Shown: one piece after another, positions 19,937 through 55,417 of the stretch
Layout: each line of letters begins with the position of its first letter
Numbering within the stretch: position 1 is the stretch's first letter
Assembly (NCBI RefSeq): GCF_025118155.1
Contig: NW_026251387.1
Span: 1,581,501-1,645,500, forward strand
Length of the DNA: 64,000 nt
Source: Cokeromyces recurvatus
Lineage: Eukaryota; Mucoromycota; Mucoromycetes; Mucorales; Mucoraceae
Direction of reading: 5' to 3'
Notes under the pieces: model-generated
Told to the model about the DNA's origin: nothing
What the model saw: only the letters and a program-made list of their open reading frames with translations
Databases searched by the model: none
Position numbers and translations under genes: made by a program

Positions 19937-20690
19937 AGAATATCTTATTTGCATAGCCTCTATAGTTTTTTATACTTTGAGTTTAGGCATTATTAGTTCT
20001 TTTTTTTTTCCTAAATAAATCAAAAATAAAAAAAATAGATACTATGTTTACCTTGTATTGGATGATGTGAATTGACAATGTAAACTGTTATAGTAGACAT
20101 AGATGATAAAGTTTGTTACCAAGTTACTTAATTAAACAAAACTTTGTAGCCTTTTTTTCTTAAAAAAAAAAGACTATGTATCTCTTTTTCCCTTTATTTA
20201 TTCAAAGAATAAATTGTCCACTGAGAAAAGATAATCTGACATCACAGCTTACAGCAAATAACTATAATAACTCAAGAGATAAATGAATACTTTTTTTATT
20301 TCAGACACTACTGTAGATAAAAAAAAGGTGTACATTTATACAAGCTACACTCAGATATTTCTACATAGTATTACTTGTTAATGCCCTTTTATATACTCAA
20401 AGAATAGAGTCAACTATACTGAAGTCTATAAATAGACAAAATTTATATAAGCAGCAACAGAGGGGGAAAAAGCTCCGTTTAAATAAATAAATAAATAAAT
20501 AAAGGAGAAGCTGTAATACATTCAATATGTATGATAATCTAAACAGAGTCATATTCTCTAATAGAAAACAATAAGCCACAATAAAGCACTGTGCCTATTA
20601 GAAGCCTTTTGTTTATGTGAAAAAAAAATATATAAATAGGGGAAGAAAAAATTTATTTTTGCTTTTCTTTTTCTTTTCTTTCTTTATGAA

Positions 20691-20808
20691 AGTGATATTC
20701 TGAGGATATTGGTCACTATAAACAATAAATCGTCAGTGATATTCTCCGGATAATGGTCACTCTAAATAATAAATCCCCCAGTGAAGTTATTTGGATGTAT
20801 TGGTCACT
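20691..20808. repeat. Array of three AGTGA...TCACT inverted-repeat units (left copy)
   Basis: Three units start at 20691, 20735 and 20780, spaced 44-45 bases. Each opens with AGTGA and closes with GGTCACT after 27-29 bases, so AGTGA and TCACT are complementary arms around a loop. The spacers are also similar (TAAACAATAAATC, TAAATAATAAATC). A fourth, decayed unit may follow (AGTATC... to TTTTCACG, about 20825-20850). The array lies about 400-540 bases upstream of the GNAT gene. It could bind a dimeric factor repeatedly or form short hairpins; function unknown. Confidence 0.75.
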
Positions 20809-21234
20809 TAAAATATTCAATCCCGAGAGTATCTTTCATTTGGAGTTTTCACGTCTCTCGTTAAATATGACTGTGAAAGGAAGCACATAATGATCAACCT
20901 CCACGATTGGTTGCTTCTGGAAACAGTAGTCTTTTTTATTATATAGAGAAGCTACTGGCTAATTGGATCATTACCCCTTTTTTATTATTAATTATAAATG
21001 AAAAAAAAAAAAAAGAAAGAAAGAATCAAGATCAGATAAATGAGAGTACTAAAACAATTACTGACATAAATTTGAAGAGATATGAACATCTCATTCAATA
21101 GAAAGACATTTGTAATATTCTCGAGTATAGAAAGCAAATTATAAAATTTTGGAGGCGCGAATTCGAAAAAATTCAATAAGCGAATTGAAAACAAACCAAG
21201 ATCCTTTTCTACTGTAACTTTATATTTTTTAACC

Positions 21235-21741
21235 ATGGGGCTTATAGAAATAAAACCAGCTACGATTAAAGATATCCCTGTTATTTTAGATTTTATTAAG
21301 AGACTTGCAGAATATGAAAAGCTTTCACATGAAGTTATTGCAACCGAAGATGTTCTTCGGGAGACCTTATTTGGTGAACATCGTTATGCTGAAGTCATAA
21401 TCGCCTATGGTAAACAAAACGATGAGGGGAATACACCTATTGAACCAGCAGGAATGGCTCTTTTCTTTCATAATTTCTCTACCTTTGTAGGACGCCCTGG
21501 ACTTTATTTAGAAGATTTATTTGTGAAGCCTGAATTTAGAGGAATGGGCATTGGTAAATGTCTCTTGATTCAATTAGCAGTAATCGCAAAAGAAAGAAAT
21601 TGCGCACGTTTTGAATGGGTTTGCTTAGATTGGAATAAACCTTCAAGAGAGTTTTATGAAGCACTTGGTGCTAAACCTTTAAGTGAATGGATTATTCATC
21701 GTATAGATGGCAAATCACTAGATGATCTTGCTGCTTTATAA
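21235..21741 (+). CDS. GNAT acetyltransferase, SAT1/SAT2 (diamine/thialysine) type, left copy
   Basis: Single-exon 168-residue protein, the normal size for the family. It has an N-terminal IKPATIKDIPVILDFIKRLAEYE, the acetyl-CoA-binding motif A (DLFVKPEFRGMGIGKCLL, containing RGMGIG) and the C-terminal FEWVCLDWNKPSREFYEALGAKPLSEW. This is the diagnostic ending of spermidine/spermine and thialysine N-acetyltransferases. Predicted to transfer acetyl from acetyl-CoA to a small amine or amino acid; the exact substrate cannot be read from sequence. It converges with FMT1, with only a 128-base spacer holding a long A tract. Identical to the right-hand copy at 53865-54371. Confidence 0.9.
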   Translation: MGLIEIKPATIKDIPVILDFIKRLAEYEKLSHEVIATEDVLRETLFGEHRYAEVIIAYGKQNDEGNTPIEPAGMALFFHNFSTFVGRPGLYLEDLFVKPEFRGMGIGKCLLIQLAVIAKERNCARFEWVCLDWNKPSREFYEALGAKPLSEWIIHRIDGKSLDDLAAL

Positions 21742-21765
21742 TTAATTATAAAACAAAATAAAAAA

Positions 21766-21767
<2 letters not shown>

Positions 21768-21813
<46 letters not shown>
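21768..21813. repeat. 46-base A tract between GNAT and FMT1 (left copy)
   Basis: Uninterrupted run of 46 A, the longest homopolymer in the window. It lies between the two convergent stop codons. The counterpart in the right copy is 43 T (53796-53838). Confidence 0.9.
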
Positions 21814-21814
<1 letters not shown>

Positions 21815-21869
21815 GTGCGCATGTATTTTTTATATATTTATTTTGAGATTGCTAAAGACAAATTTTATT

Positions 21870-23305
21870 TTATGTTTTATTCAATTCCCTATCATCGAAA
21901 CGACGCATTTTTGATCTTTTCTTTATATTATTTTTAATAATGGTATCGTCTTGCATTAATGGAGACTCAGTACCAAATTGACCTTTAGCTTGATATCCAT
22001 TTGCAAAATCAGTTGCAGATATAATGCCTTTATTTTCTACTTTTAATTTAGAACAAGCAATAACACTGCCATCACCGAAAGCTATATGTAAGGATTTACT
22101 AGCTTCATCCCATCTAAAACTTCCAGGTTCACTCTGCTGTAATGATATAGTTTCCTTCTTATTAAATGATAACAGATGAAGATCTAATAGTTGCACAATC
22201 AGATTCTTCTTCTTTTTATGGTACGTGGTACGTAAAGGAAATTGATCTCCAATAGCACGATTTAATTGTTCAGCTTGCCAGGCTGACATATTTTTAAAGT
22301 CTAATTCAGACCATTCCTTCTTCACTTTAGGTGCTTTCGTTGCTTGGGAAATATCTTGTTTTTGAGCATTCTGTTTACGTTCATAAAGATTGCAGACAGT
22401 ATCAATTAAGAGTCGAGAACCTATCTCAGCTAAGGTTTCTTTCAATTTTGAATAAACTGGGTAATCATGATTCATTGATAATAAACTAATTCTTTCTTGT
22501 GCTAAAATACGGCCTGCATCAAATTCTTTATCATCTAATTCTTGAATGGTCACACCTGCTTCTGAATCTCCATAAAGGATAGTATGTTGGATAGGTGCAG
22601 CTCCTCTATATTTTGGTAGTAAAGAAGGATGAACGTTAATAGCGCCTTGATTAAGTGATGAAATAATATGAGGTGGAATAAAATAGCCAAATGAAACTAC
22701 AATGCCTAAATCATATACTTTATTGTTTGGTAGTGTCCAATCATTTAATGTTTTTATGCCTGCTGGTGTATGATAGATTTCAATATTATTTCTTTCTGCT
22801 ATTTCTTTTGTTTCACCTATATATGTATATATAAATGTATATAAATATATATAAATATATGTGTATGCATATTAACAATAGTAATAATCTGGGGTATGTC
22901 GAAATAAATTTACTAGGAGTTATTTTTTCGAGTTTTCTACCCGTTCGTCTATCAGGAGGACAAACAAGATCAATAGTAGCAATGCAGCTACCTTGACGTT
23001 CTAGAAAGAAAAGAAAAGAAAACAGGTCAATTACCGGGTATAATGGCAATTCTGAATTCCATAATTACCCTTTTCTTTAATGAGAGCCCTTAAATGAGTA
23101 GACGCAAAACTGTCAGTTCCAAAAAATAAAATACGGAGTTTTTGGTTATTAGTCAAAGTTGTATAGTAGTGTTGATATTTAAAAGATGAGCTCTATATAT
23201 ATATATATATCTTTCTTTTTTTTAAAAGAGGCTGTATATTTTGTTTTGCTTTACTTTTTTATTTACGTTTATTTTAAAAGAGGTTCTAGATATCAATTTG
23301 AACAT
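21870..23305 (-). CDS. FMT1: Mitochondrial methionyl-tRNA formyltransferase, left copy
   Basis: Four exons (23305-23267, 23192-23069, 23000-22914, 22816-21870) give 398 residues. Exon 1 encodes MFKLISRTSFKIN, a basic, hydroxylated presequence typical of mitochondrial import. Exon 2 has KLRILFFGTDSFASTHLRAL, the start of the formyltransferase domain. Exon 4 holds VSFGYFIPPHIISSLNQGAINVHPSLLP and YRGAAPIQHTILYGDSEAGVTIQ, covering the catalytic Asn-His (NVHPSLLP) and folate site, followed by the C-terminal OB-like domain. It uses 10-formyl-tetrahydrofolate to make fMet-tRNA for mitochondrial initiation. Without exon 1 no in-frame ATG exists, which is why this start was chosen. Identical to the right copy. 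Confidence 0.93.
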
Positions 23306-23375
23306 TTTATATAGGTAAAACAATATTAAAAAGAAACGAAAAGGGTCCCTTTTTTTTTAATTCATTATTATGTGA

Positions 23376-24965
23376 CTACTTTTTTTTGGCAGATTTGGCA
23401 GATTTGGCAGATTTGGCAGGAATTTCAGCTCTAAAGACATAAACTAATTGTTGACTTTGCGTAGCAACATTATCAAGACAGCCTAAATTATACAGATCTG
23501 ATTTCATATTGGAAACCATGCTTTTCATTTGATATAAATCATGGTTAAAGATATCAATACTTTCTAAAATACATAAATTAAAGATCAATTGTTGCTTTGC
23601 GAACTTCTCTAGATATAGAATAAATGTTTTCTTTCTTTTTATATGAAATAGGATAGCCTTCAATGTTTGATGAATTGCAAAAAACATATGATGATAAGTA
23701 CTTAGGTCGCATTTCATTATCTTAATTTCATCTAAACCCTGAAGTATCTTCAATGTAAGATCTAATGCTTCTAATAAAAGGTTAATTGTAACCTGATAAT
23801 TATCTTGTTGTAATAGGGAAAATAAAACCACAAGATGCATTGAATAATAACATAATTTGAGATGTAAACTTGGATTCAATTGATTATCCCACCATCTTTT
23901 GACTTCTGCCGTTAATGAATCATATGTTGAAGATAATGTATAAGACTGAATTGCTCTATTGTATTTACGCATGTACTGAGAAAAATAAGCAAATTGAAGA
24001 TAGGAATCTTGTGACGTACAGCAATGATTATGCTGTCTAGTTGGTTCCTGCTGTGCTACATGATGAGGCGTTGTGAAGTGATTGAAGTTAGGGAAAGTAG
24101 TATCATAATGATAATTCTGATTTATGCCAGCAGATATTTCTTTAATTTTGAAGGGGATTTTATCTGGTAGTAAACATTCTTGATTTAATGAAATTGCTAA
24201 CCAAGCATCTATATAATACCAGCGATACCAGCAATTCCTTAAAATAGGCGAACTATCAGCATATTTGACTTTATTCTTTAAAAGAACACTAGCGAAATAA
24301 TGCCATGTATGTTGTTCTCCAGTGACACGTAAAAGGGTTGCAGTATAACTAAGACAAAAATAACACTGGATAGCTATGATGGATAATTGCAAATCTTCTT
24401 CTTCGTTATCTGGGAAAATAAATTCTTCTAAATAATGACAAGCCCTCTTATAAAAATAATAGGCACTATCTCTTTTGAAATCTTCTGTTGCTTTATTATT
24501 GACAGTGTTATTATTAGGTTGTTGACGACCATTGCTTATCATTGTTGGTTGCTGCTCGTTAATGGTAATCATACTGATAGCAGCCACACAATAGAGTATT
24601 GTCCTTGGAGTATTCTTCTTTTGTAATAAACTTAATTCAATCGGTGCAACCTTAAAACTTATGCAACACCAGTGTTGTATAGCTCGGAATATAAGACCTT
24701 CAGTGAGCCGAGTACTTGCTGAATGATATCGAATTGGCTTTGGTAAAGAGGGCCTTTTTTCATATGTGCTGCGAGCCTTACTCACAAGATATTTTGTAGA
24801 TTGTACACTTTGCTGTATTAGAGAATGAGGATGAGATGGTAACAAATTGTTAATTTCTAATAATTCACATAGGTCACTAAAGTTATGAATCAAATAAGAT
24901 ACTTTGCTAAAATTAAAAGGATTAGTATTAGATTTATAACAGTAATAATAAGCGATATCTGTCAT
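23376..24965 (-). CDS. Fungal-specific transcription factor domain protein without zinc cluster, left copy
   Basis: Single-exon 529-residue protein. The central part resembles the middle homology region of Gal4-type regulators (Fungal_trans). It has FYKRACHYLEEFIFP, a hydrophobic helix with IIAIQCYFCLSYTATLLR, then RNCWYRWYYIDAWLAISLNQECLLPD, which follows the W-Y-x-D-x-x-x-x-x-x-x-R/Q pattern of that domain. No Zn2Cys6 cluster is present. There is little room for one, because a divergent ORF begins only 154 bases upstream. The C-terminus ends in four AKS repeats made by a nine-base tandem repeat (GCCAAATCT). It may act through a partner or be a regulatory relic. Identical in both copies. Family assignment is by pattern only. 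Confidence 0.65.
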   Translation of the reverse strand: MTDIAYYYCYKSNTNPFNFSKVSYLIHNFSDLCELLEINNLLPSHPHSLIQQSVQSTKYLVSKARSTYEKRPSLPKPIRYHSASTRLTEGLIFRAIQHWCCISFKVAPIELSLLQKKNTPRTILYCVAAISMITINEQQPTMISNGRQQPNNNTVNNKATEDFKRDSAYYFYKRACHYLEEFIFPDNEEEDLQLSIIAIQCYFCLSYTATLLRVTGEQHTWHYFASVLLKNKVKYADSSPILRNCWYRWYYIDAWLAISLNQECLLPDKIPFKIKEISAGINQNYHYDTTFPNFNHFTTPHHVAQQEPTRQHNHCCTSQDSYLQFAYFSQYMRKYNRAIQSYTLSSTYDSLTAEVKRWWDNQLNPSLHLKLCYYSMHLVVLFSLLQQDNYQVTINLLLEALDLTLKILQGLDEIKIMKCDLSTYHHMFFAIHQTLKAILFHIKRKKTFILYLEKFAKQQLIFNLCILESIDIFNHDLYQMKSMVSNMKSDLYNLGCLDNVATQSQQLVYVFRAEIPAKSAKSAKSAKKK

Positions 24966-25118
24966 TTATTTTTTTAAAGTGTAATAATGCATTTAAAAGA
25001 AGAAAAAGAAAAAGAAGAATAGTCTTTATTTTTTTTATTTTTTATTTTTTATTTTTTTATTTTTACTCCTGAAAAAATAAACATATTGTAGTTCTCAGAG
25101 AAAACTTATCCAAGTTAA

Positions 25119-25301
25119 ATGAAGAAATTTAAAAGTCAAAATCGAGAAAATACAATTACGCAATCTGAGAAAGTGCAATTGATAAATCGAGGACGGCTCA
25201 GTCAAATACTAACTGAGAGAAAAAAGAGAATAATGTATATAAAGTGCCTACTATTTATACTTTTTGGTATGATTGTCTTATTAATGCTTTATCCATCCTA
25301 A
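25119..25301 (+). CDS. 60-residue putative tail-anchored membrane protein, left copy
   Basis: A short ORF begins MKKFKSQNREN, continues with a basic, polar stretch (GRLSQILTERKKRIM) and ends in one hydrophobic segment (IKCLLFILFGMIVLLMLY) followed by PS. That is the layout of a C-terminal tail-anchored protein. It diverges from the transcription-factor-like gene with 154 bases between start codons. No known family recognised. The same ORF in the other copy gives no independent support, because the whole block is duplicated. Confidence 0.4.
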   Translation: MKKFKSQNRENTITQSEKVQLINRGRLSQILTERKKRIMYIKCLLFILFGMIVLLMLYPS

Positions 25302-25557
25302 ACTGTATATTATTATCCTTTTACGCTATATTAGTTTATAAAATTGTGTTATATATTATTGAGTGATCAATCTAATGTATGCAATAATTGTAATGGATAA
25401 ATACTTATTCCTGTTATTTACTATGCCTCATCTTGATGTATTATATACGGTAATATATTTTCTACTAAGTTTAGCTTATATGTATCGACAATCATTTATA
25501 TTTGATTTGATAGCTAAATTATAATTATGATTAGTGGTAACTTGGTTTCAGCTCTAA

Positions 25558-26767
25558 AATTGTTTATTATTGTATATGTATCTTGTCTGTAACTTCAATT
25601 ATATTATACAAATATTGACTTCTCTTATAATTAACCATTAAGGTACAATATATAATGCCTTTTATATATGTATATTCTAAATCATTCGTGTTATAAATAC
25701 TGAGCTTTCTTTTTCTTTGTTATTGATTCCTGATTTATTTACCTCCTTTAAGAACGTTTTTATTTTCAATGTTAGCATCATTGTTATACTTTAATGGAGG
25801 ATAAGAGTCTACAGCAAAAAAAAAAAGGAAATATGGATTTACATCAAATTTTTATATATTCATGTGCATGTATTTTTGCATAACTACTTTTCAGTATTTG
25901 AGCCCTTCACCTCCTTATATTTCCTTAATAAGTGCATAATTCTGCTGATCACAATAAACTGTATTTTCGATTCTTATGTTTACCCATTTATTTCAAAATT
26001 CTGGAATATGCTTCAAATAGATTATATTTGTATATGACGTTGACAAAATAAGTAATACAAGATACTTTAACTATTTTAGTATTTATAGCTTCATGTACAA
26101 TAGATATTTATTTGTCAAGAAAATTTACTCAACATGATAAGTGAACTCTCCTCCCAAGCATAAAGCCCGACCCTTATGCTAGACATTTTGTTTCGCAACT
26201 ATTGGGTTTACTGTAGATATCAGGCGCCCGTTTATGCATCCTATAATAAGGGAAGCAAGGTACTGCTCAGGATAGACTTATTATAGAAAAAGAAGTATCA
26301 AAGCTAGTTATTCCAAGACTGATAACCATGATTATTTCACTTTAAATCATTCTCCAAAGATAGGTTATATATTATAAAAAAAAAAAAATAAGTTATTCTC
26401 AAGGAATGCATTTACCATTAATGACAAACTCAAACTTTTATAATAAGAACATGTGAATTAAAATACTAATTTGGCAAGCACTTAGTATTTATAAAGTCTA
26501 TCTGCATCATATATATCCTATAATACAACAGATTGGAATTACTTTATATTTTTAAACAATGTTTGACGAAATAATGAACTGATTATTTATAAACCTAAGT
26601 GAATTTGTAGAAATCATGCTGAATCATATATCCCCATCTTTTTACGGATTAACTATTAACAAAATATCTTTTCTATTCCTTTTTTTTATTGACAATTTTT
26701 TCTTTAAAAATAAAAGAAAGAAGGAAAAAAAGACGATTAAAAAAAAAGGAAACTAATTCGTTTGTAT
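25558..26767. other. Intergenic, between left repeat and RPL37
   Basis: Nothing coding is recognised. The inner end of the inverted repeat lies at 25557. AT-rich DNA with an A run at about 26375-26387 follows, leading to the RPL37 3' flank. Confidence 0.45.
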
Positions 26768-27551
26768 TTAAGCAGAAGTTTGCTTCTTGGCTTGAGTACC
26801 TATAACAAAGTTTAAGCCTATTTTTTTTTTTTAGAAATAAAAAATATTTTCTGCAATGCTTACCTTCACGGAAACCGTTCTTGAAACGACGTTGAACCAA
26901 CTTCAAGTGTCTCATACGGCCAGTACCAGTGGTCTTTCTACGCTTACCCTTTTCGGACCAGTTGTCTATACACATATAAACATAAGTATGTTGATCCTTA
27001 CAGTTATAAATATATTTATATGTATATAAAATGAAAACTTACAAGATCTGGTCTTAGCAGCGGGATAACCACATTGAGCGCAAGTCTTCTTTTGCTTGTG
27101 GAAAGAACGGTTACCACAACGACGACACAAAGTGTGTGTCTTGGTATGGCGCTTACCGAAAGAGCTAGTACCCTTAGTCTATCATTGTTTAAATAAGAGA
27201 GAAAAAAAAAATACAAAAGTCATTAGCTTCTTATTATGCAAACTTGTGCCTTTTCTCTTTCTCTCTTATTTTCTCGAACATCCATTATATTCCAATAAAA
27301 TTGAATGTTGTATTTATCAATTAACGGTTATTTAAATATATAAGCTATTTTGTTGAATTAAAATGCACATAAAATGTAGAGTCTAAGACAATTGATTAAA
27401 TTGTATAAATTCATTGTTATTTTTTTTTCGCATGGCTGAATCACATTTGTTATTCTTCTCCAAAAAAAAAAGGTTCAACTTATTGATAAATGGATGGATG
27501 GATGTTCTCGAATATGAAATAGAGATGAGATGATTTAAATGTATTTACCAT
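26768..27551 (-). CDS. RPL37: Large ribosomal subunit protein eL37
   Basis: Four exons encode the canonical protein. The first contains only the ATG (27551-27549), followed by a 370-base intron. The second exon starts at 27178 with [13 protein letters not shown]. The zinc-binding pairs are in [23 protein letters not shown]. Then come [35 protein letters not shown] and the C-terminal TQAKKQTSA. Length is about 92 residues. Such near-universal sequence allows all splice sites to be placed. eL37 is a basic, zinc-binding component of the 60S subunit that contacts 5.8S/25S rRNA near the exit tunnel. A first exon limited to the start codon is common in ribosomal protein genes of intron-rich fungi and is compatible with intron-dependent expression. 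Confidence 0.97.
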
Positions 27552-28317
27552 CTTCTAATAAGACTATTAATGAAAGGAGGTATTAACGGGTTATTAACAC
27601 TCATGACAGTTTTAAATTTCACCACCACTCTCCTCTGTCACTTTCTGAATAATGCCATAATACACACACCTTCCGCTAGAAGTATTAAGAAAAATAGGGA
27701 TAAAAAAAGCAAAAATTCCGGTCCGGAGTTAAAAAAAAGAAATAATTTATCGGGCCACCCTCTACTATCCTCATCATATGAATCAAATCCAGGTACAAAC
27801 AACATGGAAGAAAAATAGAATAAAAAAGAAGATGTCTGCCAATAACTGCAGTTGAAATTGGAATATCATTTTATTTATATATATCATGAGTTATACTTAC
27901 AAATATATACTCGAATTAATTGATATCTGAGTTCATTTTATTTACGAATATCATCTTTGTGTATCTCTTCACCATAAAGTATGTATTTCTATTTTTAAAA
28001 TTAACGTGTTTTTTTTTTATTATAACAGCAGCAGCAGCAGCAGCAGCAACATATCTTTTGTAACATTTTAAACATAAGCAAATCTTCTTTTTTTTTTCTT
28101 TATGAATAAAAATAGCATTATTAGTATATTGATATCATGTATGTATTTGCTTATACTGCAAGCATACACACACCTAAAGTAAAAAAATAAAAAATAAAAA
28201 TGAAAAAAAAAAGTTACACAACATATGATGAATGTAGATAAATAATACTTTATATCTTTTTTTTTTTTTTGTTTTTTACTCTTTTTCTTTTTTACTATTA
28301 TTCTCTTGAAAATAAAG
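27552..28317. promoter_or_regulatory. Divergent promoter region, RPL37 / MAPKK
   Basis: Two divergent genes share this 766-base interval. It contains an 83-codon ORF at 27570 without protein features, judged spurious, and a CAG trinucleotide run (about 28025-28048) roughly 270 bases before the MAPKK start. T-rich runs lie directly upstream of the MAPKK ATG. No ribosomal-protein regulatory box could be assigned. Confidence 0.45.
28025..28048 (+). repeat. CAG trinucleotide repeat upstream of MAPKK
   Basis: About eight consecutive CAG units in non-coding DNA between RPL37 and the MAPKK. It is GC-richer than its surroundings. In no frame does it belong to a plausible ORF. Confidence 0.8.
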
Positions 28318-29692
28318 ATGGCAAAAATAGGCAATAACGTTAAACCCAAGATTAAATCCGCTGGATTAAAAATACAACTTGTAACTCCTTCATATCCATC
28401 AGAAGATTTAATTTCTACTGACAGTTCTTCATTCTCTTTTGTTCAGACAAAAAAGTCTTCAACCAATAAAAGTTGGCGCGAGGATATCGTTCGCATTGTA
28501 CATGGAAAACATCATGAACACTATAATACAGATAGAACATTGATTGCATGTGAAATGAAATCAGATGATTTTGAAAATATTCGAAAATTAGGTGAAGGTA
28601 CAGCTGGTACTGTTTGGCAAGTCACACATAAACCGACTAAATTAATCATGGCAAAAAAGGTAGTATATCATATACAGAGAGAATAAATTAAATAATAAAA
28701 ACTTTTTATATCATAGACAATTACTGTAGATCCAGATCCACAGTTACAAAGACAGATATTAAGAGAGTTATCATTTTTAAAGACATGTGAATCTCCTCAT
28801 ATTGTATCATTTTATGGTGCGTTTTTAGATGATGGAGAAGCCACTATTTCAATTTGTATGGAATATTGTGAAGGTGGAAGTTTAGAGAATATTTATAAAA
28901 GAGCGAACCAAATTCATGGTGTGATAGGTGAGACGATTTTAGCAAATATTGCAGATTCAGTTAAGTAAACAAATATACAAGTCATATAAAGAAAGTAGTA
29001 GTCATATGCGAAACTATGTGCGTGTATGGGTGCGTGAAGAAAAGGAGATAAAAAAAAAGCACATTACTATATGCATATACAATGCAATAAAAATAAAAAA
29101 TAAAAACTTATAATCATTTATTGTATAGGTTTGTAAGGGTTTAATTTATCTGCACACTCAACATGTTATTCATAGAGATATTAAACCATCAAATATTTTA
29201 ATGACAAAGAAAGGACAAATTAAATTATGTGATCTAGGTGTTTCTGGTGAGCTTATCGATTCGATAGCACAAACATTTACAGGAACACAATATTATATGG
29301 CAGTAAGTAAATTAACCATTGAGTGTTACATGAGTTAACAATTGTTTTGTTAGCCTGAACGTATCAAGGGTGCAACCTACTCTGTAAGTTCCGATATATG
29401 GTCTTTGGGATTGACAATCATTGAAGTAGCACAAAATAGGCCTGCACTACCACCACCGGGATATCCTCATTTAAGTATTTTTGAGCTTTTGGACTTTATT
29501 GTACATCAACCAATGCCAACTGTAGGTCAAGATCGTTCTCCTGAATGTCAACACTTTGTTGAAACTTGTTTAATTAAAGAGCCTGAAAAAAGACCAACTC
29601 CTGAACAAATGTTATTACATGACTTTATTAAATTAAGAGCAAATCCAGATTGTGATTTAGAAGGTTGGTTGAAAGAATTATGGGGTTGGTGA
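28318..29692 (+). CDS. MKK1: MAP kinase kinase, Mkk1/Mkk2/Pek1 type (cell-wall integrity)
   Basis: The ATG at 28318 starts [11 protein letters not shown]. Exons assemble a complete kinase. The glycine loop is GEGTAGTV. A lysine in IMAKK precedes the first intron. The catalytic loop is HRDIKPSN, and the metal site is DLG rather than DFG (KLCDLGVSG). The activation loop [23 protein letters not shown] has the S-x3-T spacing of MAPKKs. The late segment [14 protein letters not shown] is nearly diagnostic for Mkk1/2 and Pek1, which phosphorylate the Slt2/Pmk1 MAPK in cell-wall stress. The N-terminus is a short, basic linker that could hold a docking site. Several short introns interrupt it. Confidence 0.92.
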
Positions 29693-30068
29693 TAAAAAAG
29701 AAAAAAAAAGAATTTATTTACATAAGCATTCATTCTGTACATGTGCATTTTTTTTTTTTTTTTTTTTTTTGAATTATTCTACGAATATAAACTTGGACAT
29801 AATAAAGAAAATCTATAAGTGTGTAATAGACTCAAAAACCCTATTCAATTAAAATGTAATAGTATAAGCATTTTATATATACACAAGTAATTCAAGAAGA
29901 AATGATGTATTTACTATGTAAAACAAACTATATATATTACAAAGAATTATATACCAAAAAAAGACAATTTTTGTTAAAAGGGGGAATAATGACAAATCTG
30001 AATAGGTTATCCCAATTAAACATAAAAGGAGGATTGAATATATATATTTTGTTTACATCAGTTTCTTT
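29693..30068. other. Spacer between converging MAPKK and HSF-type genes
   Basis: Includes a T run of about 22 bases (about 29749-29770) and the 3' flanks of both genes. A 65-codon ORF at 29902 overlaps the HSF-like stop region on the other strand and is judged spurious. Confidence 0.45.
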
Positions 30069-30720
30069 TTATCCAGTACGTCTTCTTTTAAAGGTTTGAC
30101 GATTATCATCTTTAATGCAGCACAATAAAAAATTAGAACAAATATATTATGAAAATAGATGCAAGTTTACCTTCTTGTCTTGATGGTGGATCTATATTAT
30201 CATGAACAGATTTATAATCGTTATTAGATTCTTGTTCTGGGTTTAATAAATGCGATTCTTTTCCAAAGCCTAATCGTTTATTTGTTGATACTATAAATCA
30301 AAGAAAATAAAAAAAAAATCATTTGAATTATAAACAAAATAAAATAAAACAAAACAAATAACTTTACCATTTTTGTCTCGGAGAGTATTTTGCTGTAATG
30401 ATGTAAATTGTTCAAACGATCGAGTACTACTGCTACTACTAATATTACCACTACTACTACTACTTTTAATACTGCTATTGCTACTATTATTATTACTATT
30501 ACTACTACTCCTACTACTACTCCTACTACTATTACTATTACTCCTACTACTACTATTATTATTGGTGGCGTTACTACCGCTATTATTATTATTATCATTA
30601 TCATCATTATGATAGCTTTGTTGTTGAAGTAGTACGGAAGCTTTAATTTCTGGTATAGTTAATGATTGTAATTTATTTATTTTTTCAATAAAAACTTCTA
30701 TAGTTTGATTTAAATATATT

Positions 30721-30756
<36 letters not shown>

Positions 30757-31834: not shown

Positions 31835-32148
31835 ATTTATTTTAGAGAAAAGGAAAAGTTGATATGTATTAATTATTTACAAATAAAAAAAGAAAAACAA
31901 TAGAAAAAGAAAAGAAGCAGAAAAGAATAATTTTTTCTTTTCTTTTTTTTTTTTTGGGGGGTGGGGATTTTTTTTTTTATTTTTTTAGTAAAAATTAATT
32001 CCGATGAATAAAATAGTCTAGAATCATCTACTGATATTCTTTTTATAAAAAGTAACTTGATAGAAATGCATCAAGAACAAAGTAAAAGAATTTATATAGT
32101 CTGTGTAACAATTCTTCCAAGTACTTCGCTTCAAATCATATTTGGTAC

Positions 32149-41479: not shown

Positions 41480-41518
<39 letters not shown>

Positions 41519-41636
41519 AACTGTGTCTCCTCCTTTTAATAATAATTTTATTTTAAACTTTATTGAGTTAAACAGAACAGTTTTTTTCCTTTCTTTTCTT
41601 CTTTTTTTTTTTTATTATTCTTTGAATAATATCATA
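41353..41636. other. Intergenic, with 34-base A tract
   Basis: Short spacer between RFC1 and the transporter. It holds a pure A tract at 41481-41514, then a T-rich stretch just upstream of the transporter start. Confidence 0.6.
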
Positions 41637-46700: not shown

Positions 46701-47270
46701 AACAATTCTTGATCGGATTTTATATTTCTATTGTTGTTGTGTTCATTATAAACAATGTATTGAGATTCATTATTATCTTTAATTTCCACAGTTGTATTAA
46801 AATTTTTTTGAGGTAAATTAAAATTAACTTCTCTATTTTCTAGTTGAATAACGTTATCTCTGTCAATCATAGGCATAGGTGTTGTAACTGTCCAAGAAGG
46901 TCCTGTCACGACACCTCCTTGCCGTGTTGCGTGATTAATAAAAGGATAATGAACAGTGGTAGAATTGTTATAATTTGGAATTATTTCAGAGGTCGTATTC
47001 CTTTTTGGTGGGATTTGTGGTAAAGGCTTTTTTTTATGTATTGTGTTTGTTGAAGAATCAGAACAAGAAAGAGGAGTTGTATTACAACTACGATCATTAA
47101 TTTTAGAAAGGTCTTTTATAATATAAATAAATGAATGAATAAAAATGAATAGATAAACATTAAGATAAGATATGAACTATGATAATACCTTGTAAATGAT
47201 TAGTGCAAAGTCGTTCTTGATTATGTATATCTTCTGTAAAGAATGTAATTTTAGAAGGTAATCCATTCAT
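43787..47270 (-). CDS. SKT5: Skt5/Chs4-like chitin synthase III activator with Sel1 repeats
   Basis: ATG at 47270 starts MNGLPSKITFFTED. A long, disordered N-terminal half (Ser/Thr/Asn-rich) follows. The C-terminal half is an array of Sel1-like repeats. Examples are EALFIKGRWCLLGPEAEECV, KAFKCFLSASKGGWTEAHYELAQLW, KAIQYYEKGAKENHTL, GMAYLKQAADMNDFASAEPAFVLGCIYAH, ALTYLKKSCQKGYPDALYFMGQIL, YQYYVKAADADHVGAMLDLSRIY and ALEYYGRAASKGYQPAAEKL. This array is the mark of Skt5/Chs4 proteins, which bind and activate chitin synthase Chs3 at the bud neck or growing tip. The protein ends with CNVQ, a CaaX-type motif; yeast Skt5 is also prenylated at its C-terminus. A C-terminal serine/lysine-rich tail precedes it. 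Introns include one before the QRY segment and others in the repeats. Confidence 0.91.
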
Positions 47271-50050
47271 CCTTAGCTTCTAGTACACAGTTAAAATAAA
47301 ATAAAACAAATCAAAATAAAATAAAATAAAACACATTAGCAAATAGTTTAAATAAGCTTATTATTATATATATTTGTTAATAACAATGCAAAATATTGTC
47401 TAAATTTGGACATTCATGTTTTGAAGTTTTGAATTTGGAAAGGTTGCAACTCCAAAAAGACGGTTTTCTAAATTGAGTGGTGGGAACTAAAATCACAATA
47501 AGTATTCTTTTAAGGCCTAAATCATTTTTTTTTAAAAAAAAAATAGACTCACACCTCAAATATGTGTCAAGTGCTATACAACTGCTTCAATAAGACAAAA
47601 AAGAATAGTATTATAAGCTTTTAATACTTCAGTCCTTACTGTTTACAAAATTAGAGCTTCACTTAACCCTGTTTTCAGCTATTGATTCTAAACTGCGAGT
47701 AGGTAGACAATTAATGTATTTATGCCTTATTTCTACTATTTTATTATTTATTTTGTTAGTAGAAAAAAAGAAAAGAAAAAAAAAAAGAAAAGAAAAATTA
47801 TTTCTTCGAAATGGTCTCTTTCGCTTAAGAATTTATAAATAGCTTACGGGTAATGATTTATAATAATGTGCTTACTCAAGTTAGATAGGGATTTTATTTT
47901 ACATTTATCAAAATTGATCTTATTTGCAAGCCATTAAATACGATTGATTCTACTATATACTAAGTGTTCATCATCTCTAAGATCGTCTACGATAATATAG
48001 TCCTAGTATTAGGCGTAGTGATAATAGCTGAAATGCCGTTGATTAGCCATCCTCTGAAAAATGTTATATTAATATCAGGGCCTACTTCATCTATGAAATT
48101 ATGGTTTTCAAACATATTCATCATATTAATATTTTCTCACTTTTCACTCAGTAATGTGTCTTACTATTATCCAAGGAAAACTAAATATATTTACTGGAGT
48201 TCATATTTGTTAGATAACATATATGGACATGAAAACTAGATAACATAAATATATAAATAATACATTTTGCTGTAATTAAAACCAGTACAATAGCTAAAAT
48301 ATAACATAAGTAGGTTATTGCATCAAACAGATGATTCTAATAACTTTCGAAATGTTTCCCTATAATAAATTTTTTAAGACTACTAGTAGCTCTGTACTTA
48401 GTAATGGATATACATATATTATTTTCGATATGTTCGTAATGAAAGGAAAAGGTTATATTACTGATTTTTTCATACCTTTGGCGCCCTTAGAGGTTTAAAC
48501 AGCACTCTTTAGCCTTATAATTAGTAGCCTTCAATTACATATAATTCATAGAGTTGGACAAGCGCTTTTTTTTTTTTGGAAAATTTTCAAATAAAATGCG
48601 GTTTTGTCATTACAAAGGTGCACCATGTAATTGGCTTTTTTATTTAATAGCTGGAAAAGAAATTTGCTCAAGTATATTTCAGTTACATCCATTGACTTAC
48701 GCTGAATCAGCAAACAAATATGATGAAAACAAAACAAAGTACACAAAAGGACGGATTTAATTTATTTAAAGGAATTGAACAGAAACACATGTAACGTAAA
48801 GATATGGATTGAGTATAAAAACACACAGGTACAAGTACGGCTGAAGAAAATAAATTTGTACAGACAAGATATAAAAAAGTTTGTAAATGTAAGAACATAT
48901 AACATACGGAGACGCATGAATTATGGTATGAATGAGTGTTGTGATTTACAAATAAGTGAAGAATAAAAAATAAAAGAAAAGACGTAAAGAAGTAGATTAA
49001 GACTTGTTAATAAGTTTGAATTAAAAGTATGTTCTAAGTTTATTCTTAAATAATAGCGAGATATTTATACTTTTTGTGAATAAAGATGATGAGTAATGAT
49101 AAGATACATAAATGTAACAAATTGTATTTGATGATATAATCATAGAAGAGAATATTATAATATCAAGAAGCATTATAAAAATATCCATATCTTTTGTATA
49201 TTCATTTTCTTTTAAAAGTAGCTCATGTACTTTTAAGCGAGATCGATTATTACTTGTATACTAATTATTCTTATATTCTCTACTTGATTAAAAAAAGTCA
49301 TTTTTTATACACTTATAATTAGTAAAACAATGATAAAAGATGTATTTTTAGATGCAAGACTTGTATTCATTATTTTCCATACAAAGACTAATATACTTTA
49401 TATGTACATAGACAGAATTATTATGGAAACACACTAAATACTTTTATCTAACCAAATCAAGTTATAAATCTTACAACCATGACAGTTCTTAATTATCAAG
49501 GCCAAACTATATCAATCTAACTATCTACTGGATATATCTTTGGCCCTCTAATATTTTCCAAAAAGCTTTACCCATCTCCAAAGGATATAAATAAAGCTCC
49601 AATTTAGTATATCTTTTCTATTTATCGAATTTTTTAAATAAAAAGAATTTATACAACGTTTTCGTAGACTTTTTGGTTTTATTTTGCTTTACCTTTTTTT
49701 ATTATTATTGTTTCCCTTTCCTAAACAATACTATACAACATAGTTATCGGTAATTACCACTAACAGCTATTAAAAGGGTTATAAATGAGCTCTTTCTAAC
49801 TAATAACAAAAAAACTACATTAATAATATTGTGAAATAATGTAAAGCCGTTTTACATCATCTTAAGCTGTAAAGTCACGAAGTATTTTCAAATAAACATA
49901 CATTTACTTTAGTGATGGTATGGATTAAATTTTAACGAAAACAAAAGAAAGGTATAATTTTATACTGTTCATTGATTGCTTGTCGTATTTGTAGATAACA
50001 TAATAATAAAATAAGCTTAATAACCTCATATACAAAAATAAAGTTAAAAG
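47271..50050. other. Long intergenic region between SKT5 and the right repeat
   Basis: No gene recognised. ORFs at 47964-48239, 48554-48760 and 48775-48966 have no motif or splice support and are low-complexity. AT-rich, with A/T runs. The inner edge of the right inverted-repeat copy begins at 50051. Confidence 0.45.
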
Positions 50051-50306
50051 TTAGAGCTGAAACCAAGTTACCACTAATCATAATTATAATTTAGCTATCA
50101 AATCAAATATAAATGATTGTCGATACATATAAGCTAAACTTAGTAGAAAATATATTACCGTATATAATACATCAAGATGAGGCATAGTAAATAACAGGAA
50201 TAAGTATTTATCCATTACAATTATTGCATACATTAGATTGATCACTCAATAATATATAACACAATTTTATAAACTAATATAGCGTAAAAGGATAATAATA
50301 TACAGT

Positions 50307-50489
50307 TTAGGATGGATAAAGCATTAATAAGACAATCATACCAAAAAGTATAAATAGTAGGCACTTTATATACATTATTCTCTTTTTTCTCTCAGTTAGT
50401 ATTTGACTGAGCCGTCCTCGATTTATCAATTGCACTTTCTCAGATTGCGTAATTGTATTTTCTCGATTTTGACTTTTAAATTTCTTCAT
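50307..50489 (-). CDS. 60-residue putative tail-anchored membrane protein, right copy
   Basis: Identical to the ORF at 25119-25301: basic N-terminal part and one C-terminal hydrophobic segment ending LLMLYPS. It diverges from the neighbouring 529-residue protein. No family recognised. Confidence 0.4.
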   Translation of the reverse strand: MKKFKSQNRENTITQSEKVQLINRGRLSQILTERKKRIMYIKCLLFILFGMIVLLMLYPS

Positions 50490-50642
50490 TTAACTTGGAT
50501 AAGTTTTCTCTGAGAACTACAATATGTTTATTTTTTCAGGAGTAAAAATAAAAAAATAAAAAATAAAAAATAAAAAAAATAAAGACTATTCTTCTTTTTC
50601 TTTTTCTTCTTTTAAATGCATTATTACACTTTAAAAAAATAA

Positions 50643-52232
50643 ATGACAGATATCGCTTATTATTACTGTTATAAATCTAATACTAATCCTTTTAATTTTA
50701 GCAAAGTATCTTATTTGATTCATAACTTTAGTGACCTATGTGAATTATTAGAAATTAACAATTTGTTACCATCTCATCCTCATTCTCTAATACAGCAAAG
50801 TGTACAATCTACAAAATATCTTGTGAGTAAGGCTCGCAGCACATATGAAAAAAGGCCCTCTTTACCAAAGCCAATTCGATATCATTCAGCAAGTACTCGG
50901 CTCACTGAAGGTCTTATATTCCGAGCTATACAACACTGGTGTTGCATAAGTTTTAAGGTTGCACCGATTGAATTAAGTTTATTACAAAAGAAGAATACTC
51001 CAAGGACAATACTCTATTGTGTGGCTGCTATCAGTATGATTACCATTAACGAGCAGCAACCAACAATGATAAGCAATGGTCGTCAACAACCTAATAATAA
51101 CACTGTCAATAATAAAGCAACAGAAGATTTCAAAAGAGATAGTGCCTATTATTTTTATAAGAGGGCTTGTCATTATTTAGAAGAATTTATTTTCCCAGAT
51201 AACGAAGAAGAAGATTTGCAATTATCCATCATAGCTATCCAGTGTTATTTTTGTCTTAGTTATACTGCAACCCTTTTACGTGTCACTGGAGAACAACATA
51301 CATGGCATTATTTCGCTAGTGTTCTTTTAAAGAATAAAGTCAAATATGCTGATAGTTCGCCTATTTTAAGGAATTGCTGGTATCGCTGGTATTATATAGA
51401 TGCTTGGTTAGCAATTTCATTAAATCAAGAATGTTTACTACCAGATAAAATCCCCTTCAAAATTAAAGAAATATCTGCTGGCATAAATCAGAATTATCAT
51501 TATGATACTACTTTCCCTAACTTCAATCACTTCACAACGCCTCATCATGTAGCACAGCAGGAACCAACTAGACAGCATAATCATTGCTGTACGTCACAAG
51601 ATTCCTATCTTCAATTTGCTTATTTTTCTCAGTACATGCGTAAATACAATAGAGCAATTCAGTCTTATACATTATCTTCAACATATGATTCATTAACGGC
51701 AGAAGTCAAAAGATGGTGGGATAATCAATTGAATCCAAGTTTACATCTCAAATTATGTTATTATTCAATGCATCTTGTGGTTTTATTTTCCCTATTACAA
51801 CAAGATAATTATCAGGTTACAATTAACCTTTTATTAGAAGCATTAGATCTTACATTGAAGATACTTCAGGGTTTAGATGAAATTAAGATAATGAAATGCG
51901 ACCTAAGTACTTATCATCATATGTTTTTTGCAATTCATCAAACATTGAAGGCTATCCTATTTCATATAAAAAGAAAGAAAACATTTATTCTATATCTAGA
52001 GAAGTTCGCAAAGCAACAATTGATCTTTAATTTATGTATTTTAGAAAGTATTGATATCTTTAACCATGATTTATATCAAATGAAAAGCATGGTTTCCAAT
52101 ATGAAATCAGATCTGTATAATTTAGGCTGTCTTGATAATGTTGCTACGCAAAGTCAACAATTAGTTTATGTCTTTAGAGCTGAAATTCCTGCCAAATCTG
52201 CCAAATCTGCCAAATCTGCCAAAAAAAAGTAG
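50643..52232 (+). CDS. Fungal-specific transcription factor domain protein without zinc cluster, right copy
   Basis: Identical 529-residue product to 23376-24965, including FYKRACHYLEEFIFP and RNCWYRWYYIDAWLA and the C-terminal AKS repeats. No Cys6 cluster is encoded upstream before the divergent 60-codon ORF. It is followed by FMT1 in the same orientation, 71 bases downstream of the stop. Confidence 0.65.
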   Translation: MTDIAYYYCYKSNTNPFNFSKVSYLIHNFSDLCELLEINNLLPSHPHSLIQQSVQSTKYLVSKARSTYEKRPSLPKPIRYHSASTRLTEGLIFRAIQHWCCISFKVAPIELSLLQKKNTPRTILYCVAAISMITINEQQPTMISNGRQQPNNNTVNNKATEDFKRDSAYYFYKRACHYLEEFIFPDNEEEDLQLSIIAIQCYFCLSYTATLLRVTGEQHTWHYFASVLLKNKVKYADSSPILRNCWYRWYYIDAWLAISLNQECLLPDKIPFKIKEISAGINQNYHYDTTFPNFNHFTTPHHVAQQEPTRQHNHCCTSQDSYLQFAYFSQYMRKYNRAIQSYTLSSTYDSLTAEVKRWWDNQLNPSLHLKLCYYSMHLVVLFSLLQQDNYQVTINLLLEALDLTLKILQGLDEIKIMKCDLSTYHHMFFAIHQTLKAILFHIKRKKTFILYLEKFAKQQLIFNLCILESIDIFNHDLYQMKSMVSNMKSDLYNLGCLDNVATQSQQLVYVFRAEIPAKSAKSAKSAKKK

Positions 52233-52303
52233 TCACATAATAATGAATTAAAAAAAAAAGGGACCCTTTTCGTTTCTTTTTAATATTGTTTTACCTATAT
52301 AAA

Positions 52304-53739
52304 ATGTTCAAATTGATATCTAGAACCTCTTTTAAAATAAACGTAAATAAAAAAGTAAAGCAAAACAAAATATACAGCCTCTTTTAAAAAAAAGAAAGAT
52401 ATATATATATATATAGAGCTCATCTTTTAAATATCAACACTACTATACAACTTTGACTAATAACCAAAAACTCCGTATTTTATTTTTTGGAACTGACAGT
52501 TTTGCGTCTACTCATTTAAGGGCTCTCATTAAAGAAAAGGGTAATTATGGAATTCAGAATTGCCATTATACCCGGTAATTGACCTGTTTTCTTTTCTTTT
52601 CTTTCTAGAACGTCAAGGTAGCTGCATTGCTACTATTGATCTTGTTTGTCCTCCTGATAGACGAACGGGTAGAAAACTCGAAAAAATAACTCCTAGTAAA
52701 TTTATTTCGACATACCCCAGATTATTACTATTGTTAATATGCATACACATATATTTATATATATTTATATACATTTATATATACATATATAGGTGAAACA
52801 AAAGAAATAGCAGAAAGAAATAATATTGAAATCTATCATACACCAGCAGGCATAAAAACATTAAATGATTGGACACTACCAAACAATAAAGTATATGATT
52901 TAGGCATTGTAGTTTCATTTGGCTATTTTATTCCACCTCATATTATTTCATCACTTAATCAAGGCGCTATTAACGTTCATCCTTCTTTACTACCAAAATA
53001 TAGAGGAGCTGCACCTATCCAACATACTATCCTTTATGGAGATTCAGAAGCAGGTGTGACCATTCAAGAATTAGATGATAAAGAATTTGATGCAGGCCGT
53101 ATTTTAGCACAAGAAAGAATTAGTTTATTATCAATGAATCATGATTACCCAGTTTATTCAAAATTGAAAGAAACCTTAGCTGAGATAGGTTCTCGACTCT
53201 TAATTGATACTGTCTGCAATCTTTATGAACGTAAACAGAATGCTCAAAAACAAGATATTTCCCAAGCAACGAAAGCACCTAAAGTGAAGAAGGAATGGTC
53301 TGAATTAGACTTTAAAAATATGTCAGCCTGGCAAGCTGAACAATTAAATCGTGCTATTGGAGATCAATTTCCTTTACGTACCACGTACCATAAAAAGAAG
53401 AAGAATCTGATTGTGCAACTATTAGATCTTCATCTGTTATCATTTAATAAGAAGGAAACTATATCATTACAGCAGAGTGAACCTGGAAGTTTTAGATGGG
53501 ATGAAGCTAGTAAATCCTTACATATAGCTTTCGGTGATGGCAGTGTTATTGCTTGTTCTAAATTAAAAGTAGAAAATAAAGGCATTATATCTGCAACTGA
53601 TTTTGCAAATGGATATCAAGCTAAAGGTCAATTTGGTACTGAGTCTCCATTAATGCAAGACGATACCATTATTAAAAATAATATAAAGAAAAGATCAAAA
53701 ATGCGTCGTTTCGATGATAGGGAATTGAATAAAACATAA
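52304..53739 (+). CDS. FMT1: Mitochondrial methionyl-tRNA formyltransferase, right copy
   Basis: Exons 52304-52342, 52417-52540, 52609-52695 and 52793-53739 give the same 398-residue protein as the left copy. It has the presequence MFKLISRTSFKIN, the FFGTDSFASTHL start and the NVHPSLLPKYRGAAPIQ catalytic region. Only 71 bases separate the upstream stop from this ATG, so its promoter must be short or overlap the preceding gene's 3' end. It is striking that a single-copy type housekeeping gene appears twice. Confidence 0.93.
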
Positions 53740-53794
53740 AATAAAATTTGTCTTTAGCAATCTCAAAATAAATATATAAAAAATACATGCGCAC

Positions 53795-53795
<1 letters not shown>

Positions 53796-53838
<43 letters not shown>
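53796..53838. repeat. 43-base T tract between FMT1 and GNAT (right copy)
   Basis: Counterpart of the 46-base A tract at 21768-21813, three bases shorter. Lies between two convergent stop codons. Confidence 0.9.
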
Positions 53839-53840
<2 letters not shown>

Positions 53841-53864
53841 TTTTTTATTTTGTTTTATAATTAA

Positions 53865-54371
53865 TTATAAAGCAGCAAGATCATCTAGTGATTTGCCATC
53901 TATACGATGAATAATCCATTCACTTAAAGGTTTAGCACCAAGTGCTTCATAAAACTCTCTTGAAGGTTTATTCCAATCTAAGCAAACCCATTCAAAACGT
54001 GCGCAATTTCTTTCTTTTGCGATTACTGCTAATTGAATCAAGAGACATTTACCAATGCCCATTCCTCTAAATTCAGGCTTCACAAATAAATCTTCTAAAT
54101 AAAGTCCAGGGCGTCCTACAAAGGTAGAGAAATTATGAAAGAAAAGAGCCATTCCTGCTGGTTCAATAGGTGTATTCCCCTCATCGTTTTGTTTACCATA
54201 GGCGATTATGACTTCAGCATAACGATGTTCACCAAATAAGGTCTCCCGAAGAACATCTTCGGTTGCAATAACTTCATGTGAAAGCTTTTCATATTCTGCA
54301 AGTCTCTTAATAAAATCTAAAATAACAGGGATATCTTTAATCGTAGCTGGTTTTATTTCTATAAGCCCCAT
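53865..54371 (-). CDS. GNAT acetyltransferase, SAT1/SAT2 type, right copy
   Basis: 168 residues identical to the left copy, with the acetyl-CoA-binding RGMGIG motif and the FEWVCLDWNKPSREFYEALGA ending of the spermidine/spermine-thialysine acetyltransferase group. Converges with FMT1 across the long T tract. The upstream region carries the hairpin-like array at 54799-54916. Confidence 0.9.
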   Translation of the reverse strand: MGLIEIKPATIKDIPVILDFIKRLAEYEKLSHEVIATEDVLRETLFGEHRYAEVIIAYGKQNDEGNTPIEPAGMALFFHNFSTFVGRPGLYLEDLFVKPEFRGMGIGKCLLIQLAVIAKERNCARFEWVCLDWNKPSREFYEALGAKPLSEWIIHRIDGKSLDDLAAL

Positions 54372-54798
54372 GGTTAAAAAATATAAAGTTACAGTAGAAA
54401 AGGATCTTGGTTTGTTTTCAATTCGCTTATTGAATTTTTTCGAATTCGCGCCTCCAAAATTTTATAATTTGCTTTCTATACTCGAGAATATTACAAATGT
54501 CTTTCTATTGAATGAGATGTTCATATCTCTTCAAATTTATGTCAGTAATTGTTTTAGTACTCTCATTTATCTGATCTTGATTCTTTCTTTCTTTTTTTTT
54601 TTTTTTCATTTATAATTAATAATAAAAAAGGGGTAATGATCCAATTAGCCAGTAGCTTCTCTATATAATAAAAAAGACTACTGTTTCCAGAAGCAACCAA
54701 TCGTGGAGGTTGATCATTATGTGCTTCCTTTCACAGTCATATTTAACGAGAGACGTGAAAACTCCAAATGAAAGATACTCTCGGGATTGAATATTTTA

Positions 54799-54916
54799 AG
54801 TGACCAATACATCCAAATAACTTCACTGGGGGATTTATTATTTAGAGTGACCATTATCCGGAGAATATCACTGACGATTTATTGTTTATAGTGACCAATA
54901 TCCTCAGAATATCACT
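54799..54916. repeat. Array of three AGTGA...TCACT inverted-repeat units (right copy)
   Basis: Same array as at 20691-20808 in opposite orientation. Unit edges AGTGACC...TATCACT repeat three times at 44-45 base intervals. No difference from the left copy was noticed here. Confidence 0.75.
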
Positions 54917-55417
54917 TTCATAAAGAAAGAAAAGAAAAAGAAAAGCAAAAATAAATTTTTTCTTCCCCTATTTATATATTTTTTTTTCACATAAACAAAA
55001 GGCTTCTAATAGGCACAGTGCTTTATTGTGGCTTATTGTTTTCTATTAGAGAATATGACTCTGTTTAGATCATCATACATATTGAATGTATTACAGCTTC
55101 TCCTTTATTTATTTATTTATTTATTTAAACGGAGCTTTTTCCCCCTCTGTTGCTGCTTATATAAATTTTGTCTATTTATAGACTTCAGTATAGTTGACTC
55201 TATTCTTTGAGTATATAAAAGGGCATTAACAAGTAATACTATGTAGAAATATCTGAGTGTAGCTTGTATAAATGTACACCTTTTTTTTATCTACAGTAGT
55301 GTCTGAAATAAAAAAAGTATTCATTTATCTCTTGAGTTATTATAGTTATTTGCTGTAAGCTGTGATGTCAGATTATCTTTTCTCAGTGGACAATTTATTC
55401 TTTGAATAAATAAAGGG

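What the first reader, a model, noticed from the sequence alone, without database searches (positions are those of the whole stretch)
20190..55417. 5.37 kb near-identical inverted duplication 24.5 kb apart
Two inverted copies (20190-25557 and 50051-55417) share a GNAT enzyme, FMT1, a transcription-factor-domain protein and a 60-codon ORF. By eye they differ by one base and three homopolymer lengths. Flanks do not match and no transposase or LTR is seen. A recent segmental duplication, strong gene conversion or an assembly artefact are all possible. Two copies of FMT1 would be unusual.
Basis: seen in the sequence. Interest (0 to 1): 0.78.

Follow-up and report, generated by a model that had tools for sequence, protein, structure and literature searches.

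The report
Inverted gene-block duplication between dispersed repeats
A fungus chromosome carries two nearly identical, oppositely oriented 5.4-kb copies of a small gene block whose ends fall inside repeated sequences found elsewhere in the genome; it looks like a real, ordinary repeat-driven duplication that could let the 24.5 kb between the copies flip.

Summary
Blocks 20190-25557 (+) and 50051-55417 (-) differ by one substitution and three homopolymer lengths, and the whole block is found only there in the 28-Mb genome. The organism is Cokeromyces recurvatus, Mucorales. Each copy holds an intact GNAT gene, an intact four-exon FMT1 and an intact conserved 529-aa gene. Retained introns exclude retroposition.

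New here: both block ends lie inside two dispersed repeat families, and in both copies the repeat continues past the block edge. At the left edge A continues as one subtype, with a 33-nt gap, and B as another. At the right edge A keeps 25 nt of repeat that B lacks; B has lost about 60 nt and then continues in the repeat. Best reading: a segmental duplication seeded by recombination between dispersed repeats, probably with B as donor, and either young or kept identical by gene conversion. An assembly artefact is unlikely but cannot be excluded without reads. The layout closely resembles the yeast chromosome XIV flip/flop inverted repeat (4.2-kb arms, 24 kb apart). A sex-locus reading was tested and dropped. 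New member of a known kind.

The parts
20190..25557 (+). Arm A of the inverted duplication (5368 bp)
50051..55417 (-). Arm B of the inverted duplication (5367 bp), 1 substitution and 3 homopolymer differences from A
25558..50050 (.). 24.5-kb segment between the arms (kinase, MINDY deubiquitinase, CCCH zinc-finger, RFC1-like (name recalled), TPT-family transporter, Sel1-repeat genes, and a dispersed repeat at 48937-49484); would invert on crossover between the arms
   Evidence: genes; edges searched:
20190..21010 (+). Left dispersed repeat core inside arm A (ten other copies compared, 86-91% by BLAST)
19079..20189 (+). Left repeat continuing outside arm A as the C62 subtype (86-88% to three C62 copies, the longest match from 19079), with a 33-nt gap directly left of the block
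55418..55877 (-). Left repeat continuing outside arm B as the C34/C1/C13 subtype (87-91%), no gap at the edge
25198..25582 (+). Right dispersed repeat at arm A; runs 25 nt past the block edge, then DNA without a match for about 1.2 kb
49971..50410 (-). Right dispersed repeat at arm B; about 60 nt missing at 50050/50051 (59 against the closest copy, L053), then repeat tail of about 80 nt
21235..21741 (+). GNAT acetyltransferase gene, arm A (168 aa, intact)
53865..54371 (-). GNAT acetyltransferase gene, arm B (coordinates carried over from arm A)
21870..23305 (-). FMT1, methionyl-tRNA formyltransferase, arm A: 4 exons, 398 aa (hand-made gene model)
   Evidence: TIGR00460, 232.5 bits, cut-off 201.5
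52304..53739 (+). FMT1, arm B: same protein
23376..24965 (-). 529-aa protein, some relatives named 'transcription factor domain-containing', arm A
50643..52232 (+). The same 529-aa protein, arm B
20536..20536 (.). The only substitution: A in arm A; G in arm B (55071); 10 of 10 other aligned repeat copies carry G

Best explanation
A real segmental duplication of a three-gene block, seeded by non-allelic recombination between dispersed repeats. A break in or near the left repeat at site A was repaired using the related left repeat at site B (inverted, about 35 kb away) as template. Synthesis copied 5.4 kb through GNAT, FMT1 and the 529-aa gene into the right repeat, and the new copy was joined at A. 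Shown: the identity, repeat sequence at all four edges, intact intron-bearing genes. Inferred: direction B to A, replication-type repair, youth or homogenisation as the reason for one substitution in 5.36 kb, and the capacity to invert the 24.5 kb between the arms.
For: Edges of both arms lie in the same two dispersed repeat families and all four flanks continue in repeat sequence, at A-right for 25 nt only. At A the left junction is in register with a C62 copy over 2,067 alignment columns at 88%, apart from a 33-nt gap. The first 110 nt of the block are closer to C34 and C1, which share B's long flank (93-98% in the two bins), than to the three C62 copies (74-92%); 2 of 2 sites that separate these groups agree with B's type. 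The copy closest to the core, C45 (96.6-96.8%), has B-type flank for about 160 nt. FMT1 keeps its introns. No other contig repeats any of the four flanks as a whole; best partial match 97% over about 480 nt.
Against: Direction rests on little: only 2 sites in 811 separate the groups; the core tree puts the arms next to a clade of C45, C62a and C22, not with C34/C1; C13 and C22, also B-type next to the edge, are no closer than C62 in the first 50 nt (80% and 92%); and C45 carries A-type flank sequence too, downstream of its core. A has 25 nt of right repeat that B lacks, so A is not a plain copy of present-day B; B must have lost about 60 nt separately, right at the edge. One assembly, no reads. 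Linkage to the carrier gene beside B does not tell A from B: it shares a contig length with a block gene in Benjaminiella, Mucor hiemalis and Pilobolus (0.78-4.35 Mb), but not in several others, for example Mucor saturninus, Mycotypha and Radiomyces.
Confidence: 0.5

Rival explanations
1. Older duplication kept identical by gene conversion between the arms, with crossovers flipping the 24.5 kb between them, as proposed for the Saccharomyces flip/flop region.
For: The two larger indels sit just outside the two block ends (33 nt missing in A at left, about 60 nt missing in B at right), where conversion has too little outer homology to erase them; identity stops at those points. One scar on each arm at opposite ends is what gap repair with a crossover, or a later inversion, would leave. 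Geometry like PMC9731477 (passages read).
Against: No detectable homology between A and B flanks beyond the edges (2 kb each side, best E 0.012). No second strain or species to show long-term homogenisation or both orientations.
Confidence: 0.33
2. Assembly artefact: one arm was placed twice, or a chimeric join.
For: No reads available. The assembly holds at least one other very large near-identical pair, contig C27 (316 kb) against C18, so it is not free of redundancy. Three of the four differences between the arms are homopolymer lengths, a typical sequencing error.
Against: Both arms lie inside one 2.30-Mb contig with different flanks on all four sides. Two edges carry repeat-internal gaps that a misjoin would not be expected to make.
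Confidence: 0.14
3. A mobile element carrying three genes.
For: Block ends coincide with repeat families.
Against: No transposase domain in the block ORFs that were scanned (GNAT, FMT1, 529-aa and 60-codon ORFs; not a six-frame scan); the only transposase-like match was below cut-off (E 0.027) in a gene outside the block. Full block found only twice, and left and right repeats do not occur close together elsewhere among the listed matches; introns retained. Target-site duplications were not tested systematically.
Confidence: 0.03

Closest known systems
Saccharomyces cerevisiae chromosome XIV flip/flop inverted repeats (PMC9731477; passages read)
   Same: Two near-identical gene-bearing arms (4.2 kb there, 5.37 kb here) in opposite orientation, 24 kb (24.5 kb here) apart, in a fungal nuclear genome.
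   Different: [quoted passage not shown] Here one genome, one orientation, different genes, and ends in dispersed repeats.
Repeat-mediated segmental duplications of yeast (PMC2518615; passages read)
   Same: About half of the junctions in dispersed repeats; explained there by Rad52- and Pol32-dependent break-induced replication.
   Different: [quoted passage not shown] this one is inverted, 5.4 kb, with the copies 24.5 kb apart.
Inverted-repeat recombination at stalled forks in yeast (PMC8748988; abstract and outline read)
   Same: Recombination between linked inverted repeats; half of the replication-associated recombinants carry an inversion of the sequence between the repeats.
   Different: An engineered barrier near inverted repeats, not a natural duplication.
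Mating-type switching by inversion (Hansenula polymorpha, PMC4238957; search listing with start of abstract only)
   Same: Inversion of a chromosomal region, with a phenotype.
   Different: No HMG-box gene was found in this window.

Membership tests
Segmental duplication | Two copies of a low-copy segment over 1 kb and over 90% identical | tested here: met
   5.37 kb, one substitution, two copies
Segmental duplication | Present in the organism, not only in the assembly | not testable with these tools
   no reads
Repeat-mediated segmental duplication | Junctions lie in homologous dispersed repeats | tested here: met
   all four flanks continue in the repeat families, A-right for 25 nt only; not perfectly in register (gaps of 33 and about 60 nt)
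Flip/flop inversion system | Near-identical inverted arms around a segment present once | tested here: met
   segment edges searched, its middle not
Flip/flop inversion system | Both orientations found among strains or species | not testable with these tools
   one genome, no relatives offered
Flip/flop inversion system | Arms homogenised over long time | tested here: inconclusive
   edge scars fit, but no second species
Transposon or gene-capturing mobile element | More than two whole copies; transposase | tested here: not met
   two whole copies only; no transposase domain in the block ORFs scanned
Transposon or gene-capturing mobile element | Target-site duplication | not tested
   edges lie inside older repeats
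Retroposed gene copy | Loss of introns | tested here: not met
   three introns kept in FMT1 in both arms
Mucorales sex locus (tptA-HMG-rnhA; recalled) | HMG-box gene between the TPT and helicase genes | tested here: not met
   0 of 29 HMG-box matches in the genome fall in the window; nearest on the contig C1:1697193, 52 kb beyond its end

The most novel reading that the evidence does not exclude
The arms are an active inversion switch in a Mucoromycota fungus: the 24.5-kb segment exists in both orientations, the arms are kept identical by conversion, and the two edge scars (A-left, B-right) record a gap repair resolved with a crossover between two pairs of dispersed repeats.
Probability: 0.22. 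Interest if true: 0.6.

Novelty: new member of a known kind. Interest (0 to 1): 0.36.

Why it matters
If real, it doubles the dose of the only fmt gene found in this genome and of two other genes, and places a 5.4-kb inverted repeat around 24.5 kb of genes. If the arms are homogenised, it would be an early-diverging-fungus counterpart of the yeast flip/flop region, useful for asking whether such geometry arises repeatedly and why the arms stay identical.

Tried and rejected
Sex locus: the TPT-family gene and a large helicase-like gene suggested the tptA-HMG-rnhA locus of Mucorales (recalled); the HMG search found none in the window and the TPT gene is not the genome's best match to that family, so it was dropped.

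Simple direction call from flanks: at first B looked like the only copy with repeat continuing past its left edge; the local comparison showed that A continues too, in another subtype. The core tree did not give the clean B-type grouping I expected; only the first 110 nt lean that way, on 2 sites. The G/A substitution shows a mutation on A (10 of 10 other aligned copies have G), which says nothing about direction.

Identifying the left repeat as a named transposon: the ORF lists of two other copies show no frame of 90 aa or more over the repeat (the 115- and 138-aa ORFs of L032 lie beyond it); no protein scan of the repeats was made. No Rfam match in the window at gathering threshold. Which site is ancestral: the carrier gene beside B was used for linkage without a decisive result; identical duplicates cannot be seen in the protein lists, since even this genome's two GNAT copies are listed as one member. 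A first FMT1 splice model was wrong and was corrected.

Literature (listings only unless said otherwise): 'Cokeromyces recurvatus, genome' gave 15 papers (passages of one, PMC9540331); 'Cokeromyces, duplication, inverted' gave 1, on a transposon; 'Mucorales, segmental duplication, inverted repeat' gave 550 with two of three terms, 12 listed; further listings. None of the listed titles and abstract starts reports this duplication; subscription papers are not covered. The abstract of a paper on bacterial inversions (PMC5372343) was read and not used.

Full report
What is there. The two arms are exactly as described: 20190-25557 (+) and 50051-55417 (-), 5368 and 5367 bp, one substitution (20536 A / 55071 G) and three homopolymer length differences. 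A search of the whole genome (28.05 Mb, 64 contigs; window = C1:1581501-1645500) lists 69 matches, with 40 of 114 candidates scored: 2 are the whole arms; the other 67 cover parts of the block, and apart from short low-complexity pieces they fall in its first ~836 or last ~360 bases. The genome is Cokeromyces recurvatus: the carrier gene at 57527-58189 (221 aa searched) is 100% identical to a named C. recurvatus protein on a contig of the same length as ours, 2,298,495 bp (taxonomy).

Genes. Each arm carries an intact GNAT acetyltransferase (168 aa; best relative 85% in Benjaminiella poitrasii), an intact FMT1 (398 aa, four exons, hand-made model, same protein in both arms; TIGR00460 fmt at 232.5 bits against a cut-off of 201.5), and an intact 529-aa gene with 36 matches in the protein search including itself; the named ones are Mucorales (classification recalled) and several are called 'transcription factor domain-containing' by a source, though no Pfam (E<=1) or NCBIfam model hits it. 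Formyl_trans_N gives three places in the genome: the two arms and C20:131524; the latter was not studied. Four pairs of GNAT and 529-aa relatives share a contig length (4,348,764; 436,650; 3,039,767 and 9,635 bp), which suggests that the cluster is older than this genome; in at least five named genera (Pilobolus, Syncephalastrum, Choanephora, Spinellus, Helicostylum) the two are on different contigs. Equal contig length is my inference for a shared contig. About 3.3 kb of the block is coding (without the 60-codon ORF) and none of the four differences falls in it.

Edges. The first ~820 bases of the block are the core of a dispersed repeat. Ten other copies were compared (nine over the whole core, C9 over part), 86-91% by BLAST. 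At the left edge the repeat continues outside both arms: outside B as the type found at C34, C1:2018k and C13 (1,328-1,368 alignment columns at 87-91%, core included), outside A as the type of three C62 copies (2,067 columns at 88%, 1,773 at 87%, 1,479 at 86%, core included). A lacks 33 nt of the repeat directly left of the block, which B and the nine other copies in that alignment keep. The last 360 bases are a second, more diverged repeat (8 other copies, 68-77%). There A keeps 25 further nt of the family (18-22 of 25 matching in register in 6 of 8 copies; the other two, L056 and L057, give 12 and 13; of 20,000 random places in the window 13 reached 18, and 5 reached 22 or more, the query's own place among them) and then enters DNA without a match for about 1.2 kb. 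B lacks about 60 nt at that point (59 against L053, 64-71 against some others) and then continues in the family for about 80 nt (86% over 80 nt to L053, 76% over 85 to L051, 73% over 81 to L054; the other five match over 22-51 nt). The flanks of A and B have no detectable similarity to each other beyond these pieces (best E 0.012).

Reading. All four flanks therefore belong to the repeats, with two scars: A-left and B-right. The simplest account is that B is the native site and A received a copy through repeat-seeded repair. In favour: the block's first 110 nt are closer to C34 and C1, which share B's flank, than to C62, and the nearest relative of the core, C45, has B-type flank for about 160 nt. 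Against: only 2 sites separate the groups, C13 and C22 do not follow the pattern in the first 50 nt, the tree of the whole core does not group the arms with C34/C1, C45 holds A-type flank sequence downstream, and B's loss of about 60 nt must be a separate event that happened to fall on the edge. If such a loss were random over the block, I estimate roughly 1-2% for such a position, which is why I keep the rival seriously: old arms, homogenised by conversion up to the heterologies, or gap repair with a crossover that inverted the 24.5 kb. The second version puts both scars on the new copy's junctions and explains why they now sit on different arms; it needs a truncated right repeat at A-right from before. 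Orientation in a relative would decide; none was available.

Age. One substitution in about 5,363 aligned sites corresponds to roughly 1e5 to 1e6 generations for assumed rates of 1e-9 to 1e-10 per site and generation (recalled rates; arithmetic), if no conversion took place; with the Poisson range for one event the span is about 2e3 to 5e6. The substitution is on A: 10 of 10 other aligned repeat copies carry B's base.

Artefact. Neither depth nor reads can be seen. Both arms are inside one 2.30-Mb contig; no other contig repeats any of the four flanks as a whole, the best partial match being 97% over about 480 nt at C62 (in only 40 of 190 and 40 of 150 candidates were scored); and gaps inside repeats at two edges are not what I would expect of a misjoin. 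Still, the assembly contains a 316-kb near-identical pair (C18/C27), so redundancy exists elsewhere.

Known kinds. The best analogue is the yeast chromosome XIV flip/flop region, two almost identical 4.2-kb sequences 24 kb apart in opposite orientation, where conversion is proposed to homogenise the arms and occasional crossovers to invert the middle (PMC9731477, passages). Repeat-mediated segmental duplication by break-induced replication is described in yeast (PMC2518615, passages). This case looks like these; membership in the flip/flop kind needs both orientations, which could not be tested.

Noticed in passing
G000 contigs C18 (about 82,900-398,987) and C27 (1-316,107); loci L018, L019, L074-L085: C27 looks like a second copy of the last 316 kb of C18: six sampled places (five of about 1 kb, one of 8 kb) match in the expected order, five of six at 100% and one at 98.5% with 14 gap positions; C27's first base meets C18's last. 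It may be a haplotig, an aneuploid segment or a true duplication.
   Followed up: partly
window 20690-21000 and the same part of other copies: Within the left repeat, positions 501-811 are 95-100% identical to the ten aligned copies in each bin while positions 1-400 are 74-99% where covered: an unusually conserved half, with no Rfam match in the window.
   Followed up: no
window 48937-49484: A further dispersed repeat (about 550 bp, about 70% identity, 36 matches of some length in the scored list), several of them within a few kb of a contig start.
   Followed up: no
window 60553-63826: A large gene with a Cas4/DUF83-like domain (22.9 bits, cut-off 22.7) and helicase-like AAA matches below cut-off, close to the window end.
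   Followed up: no
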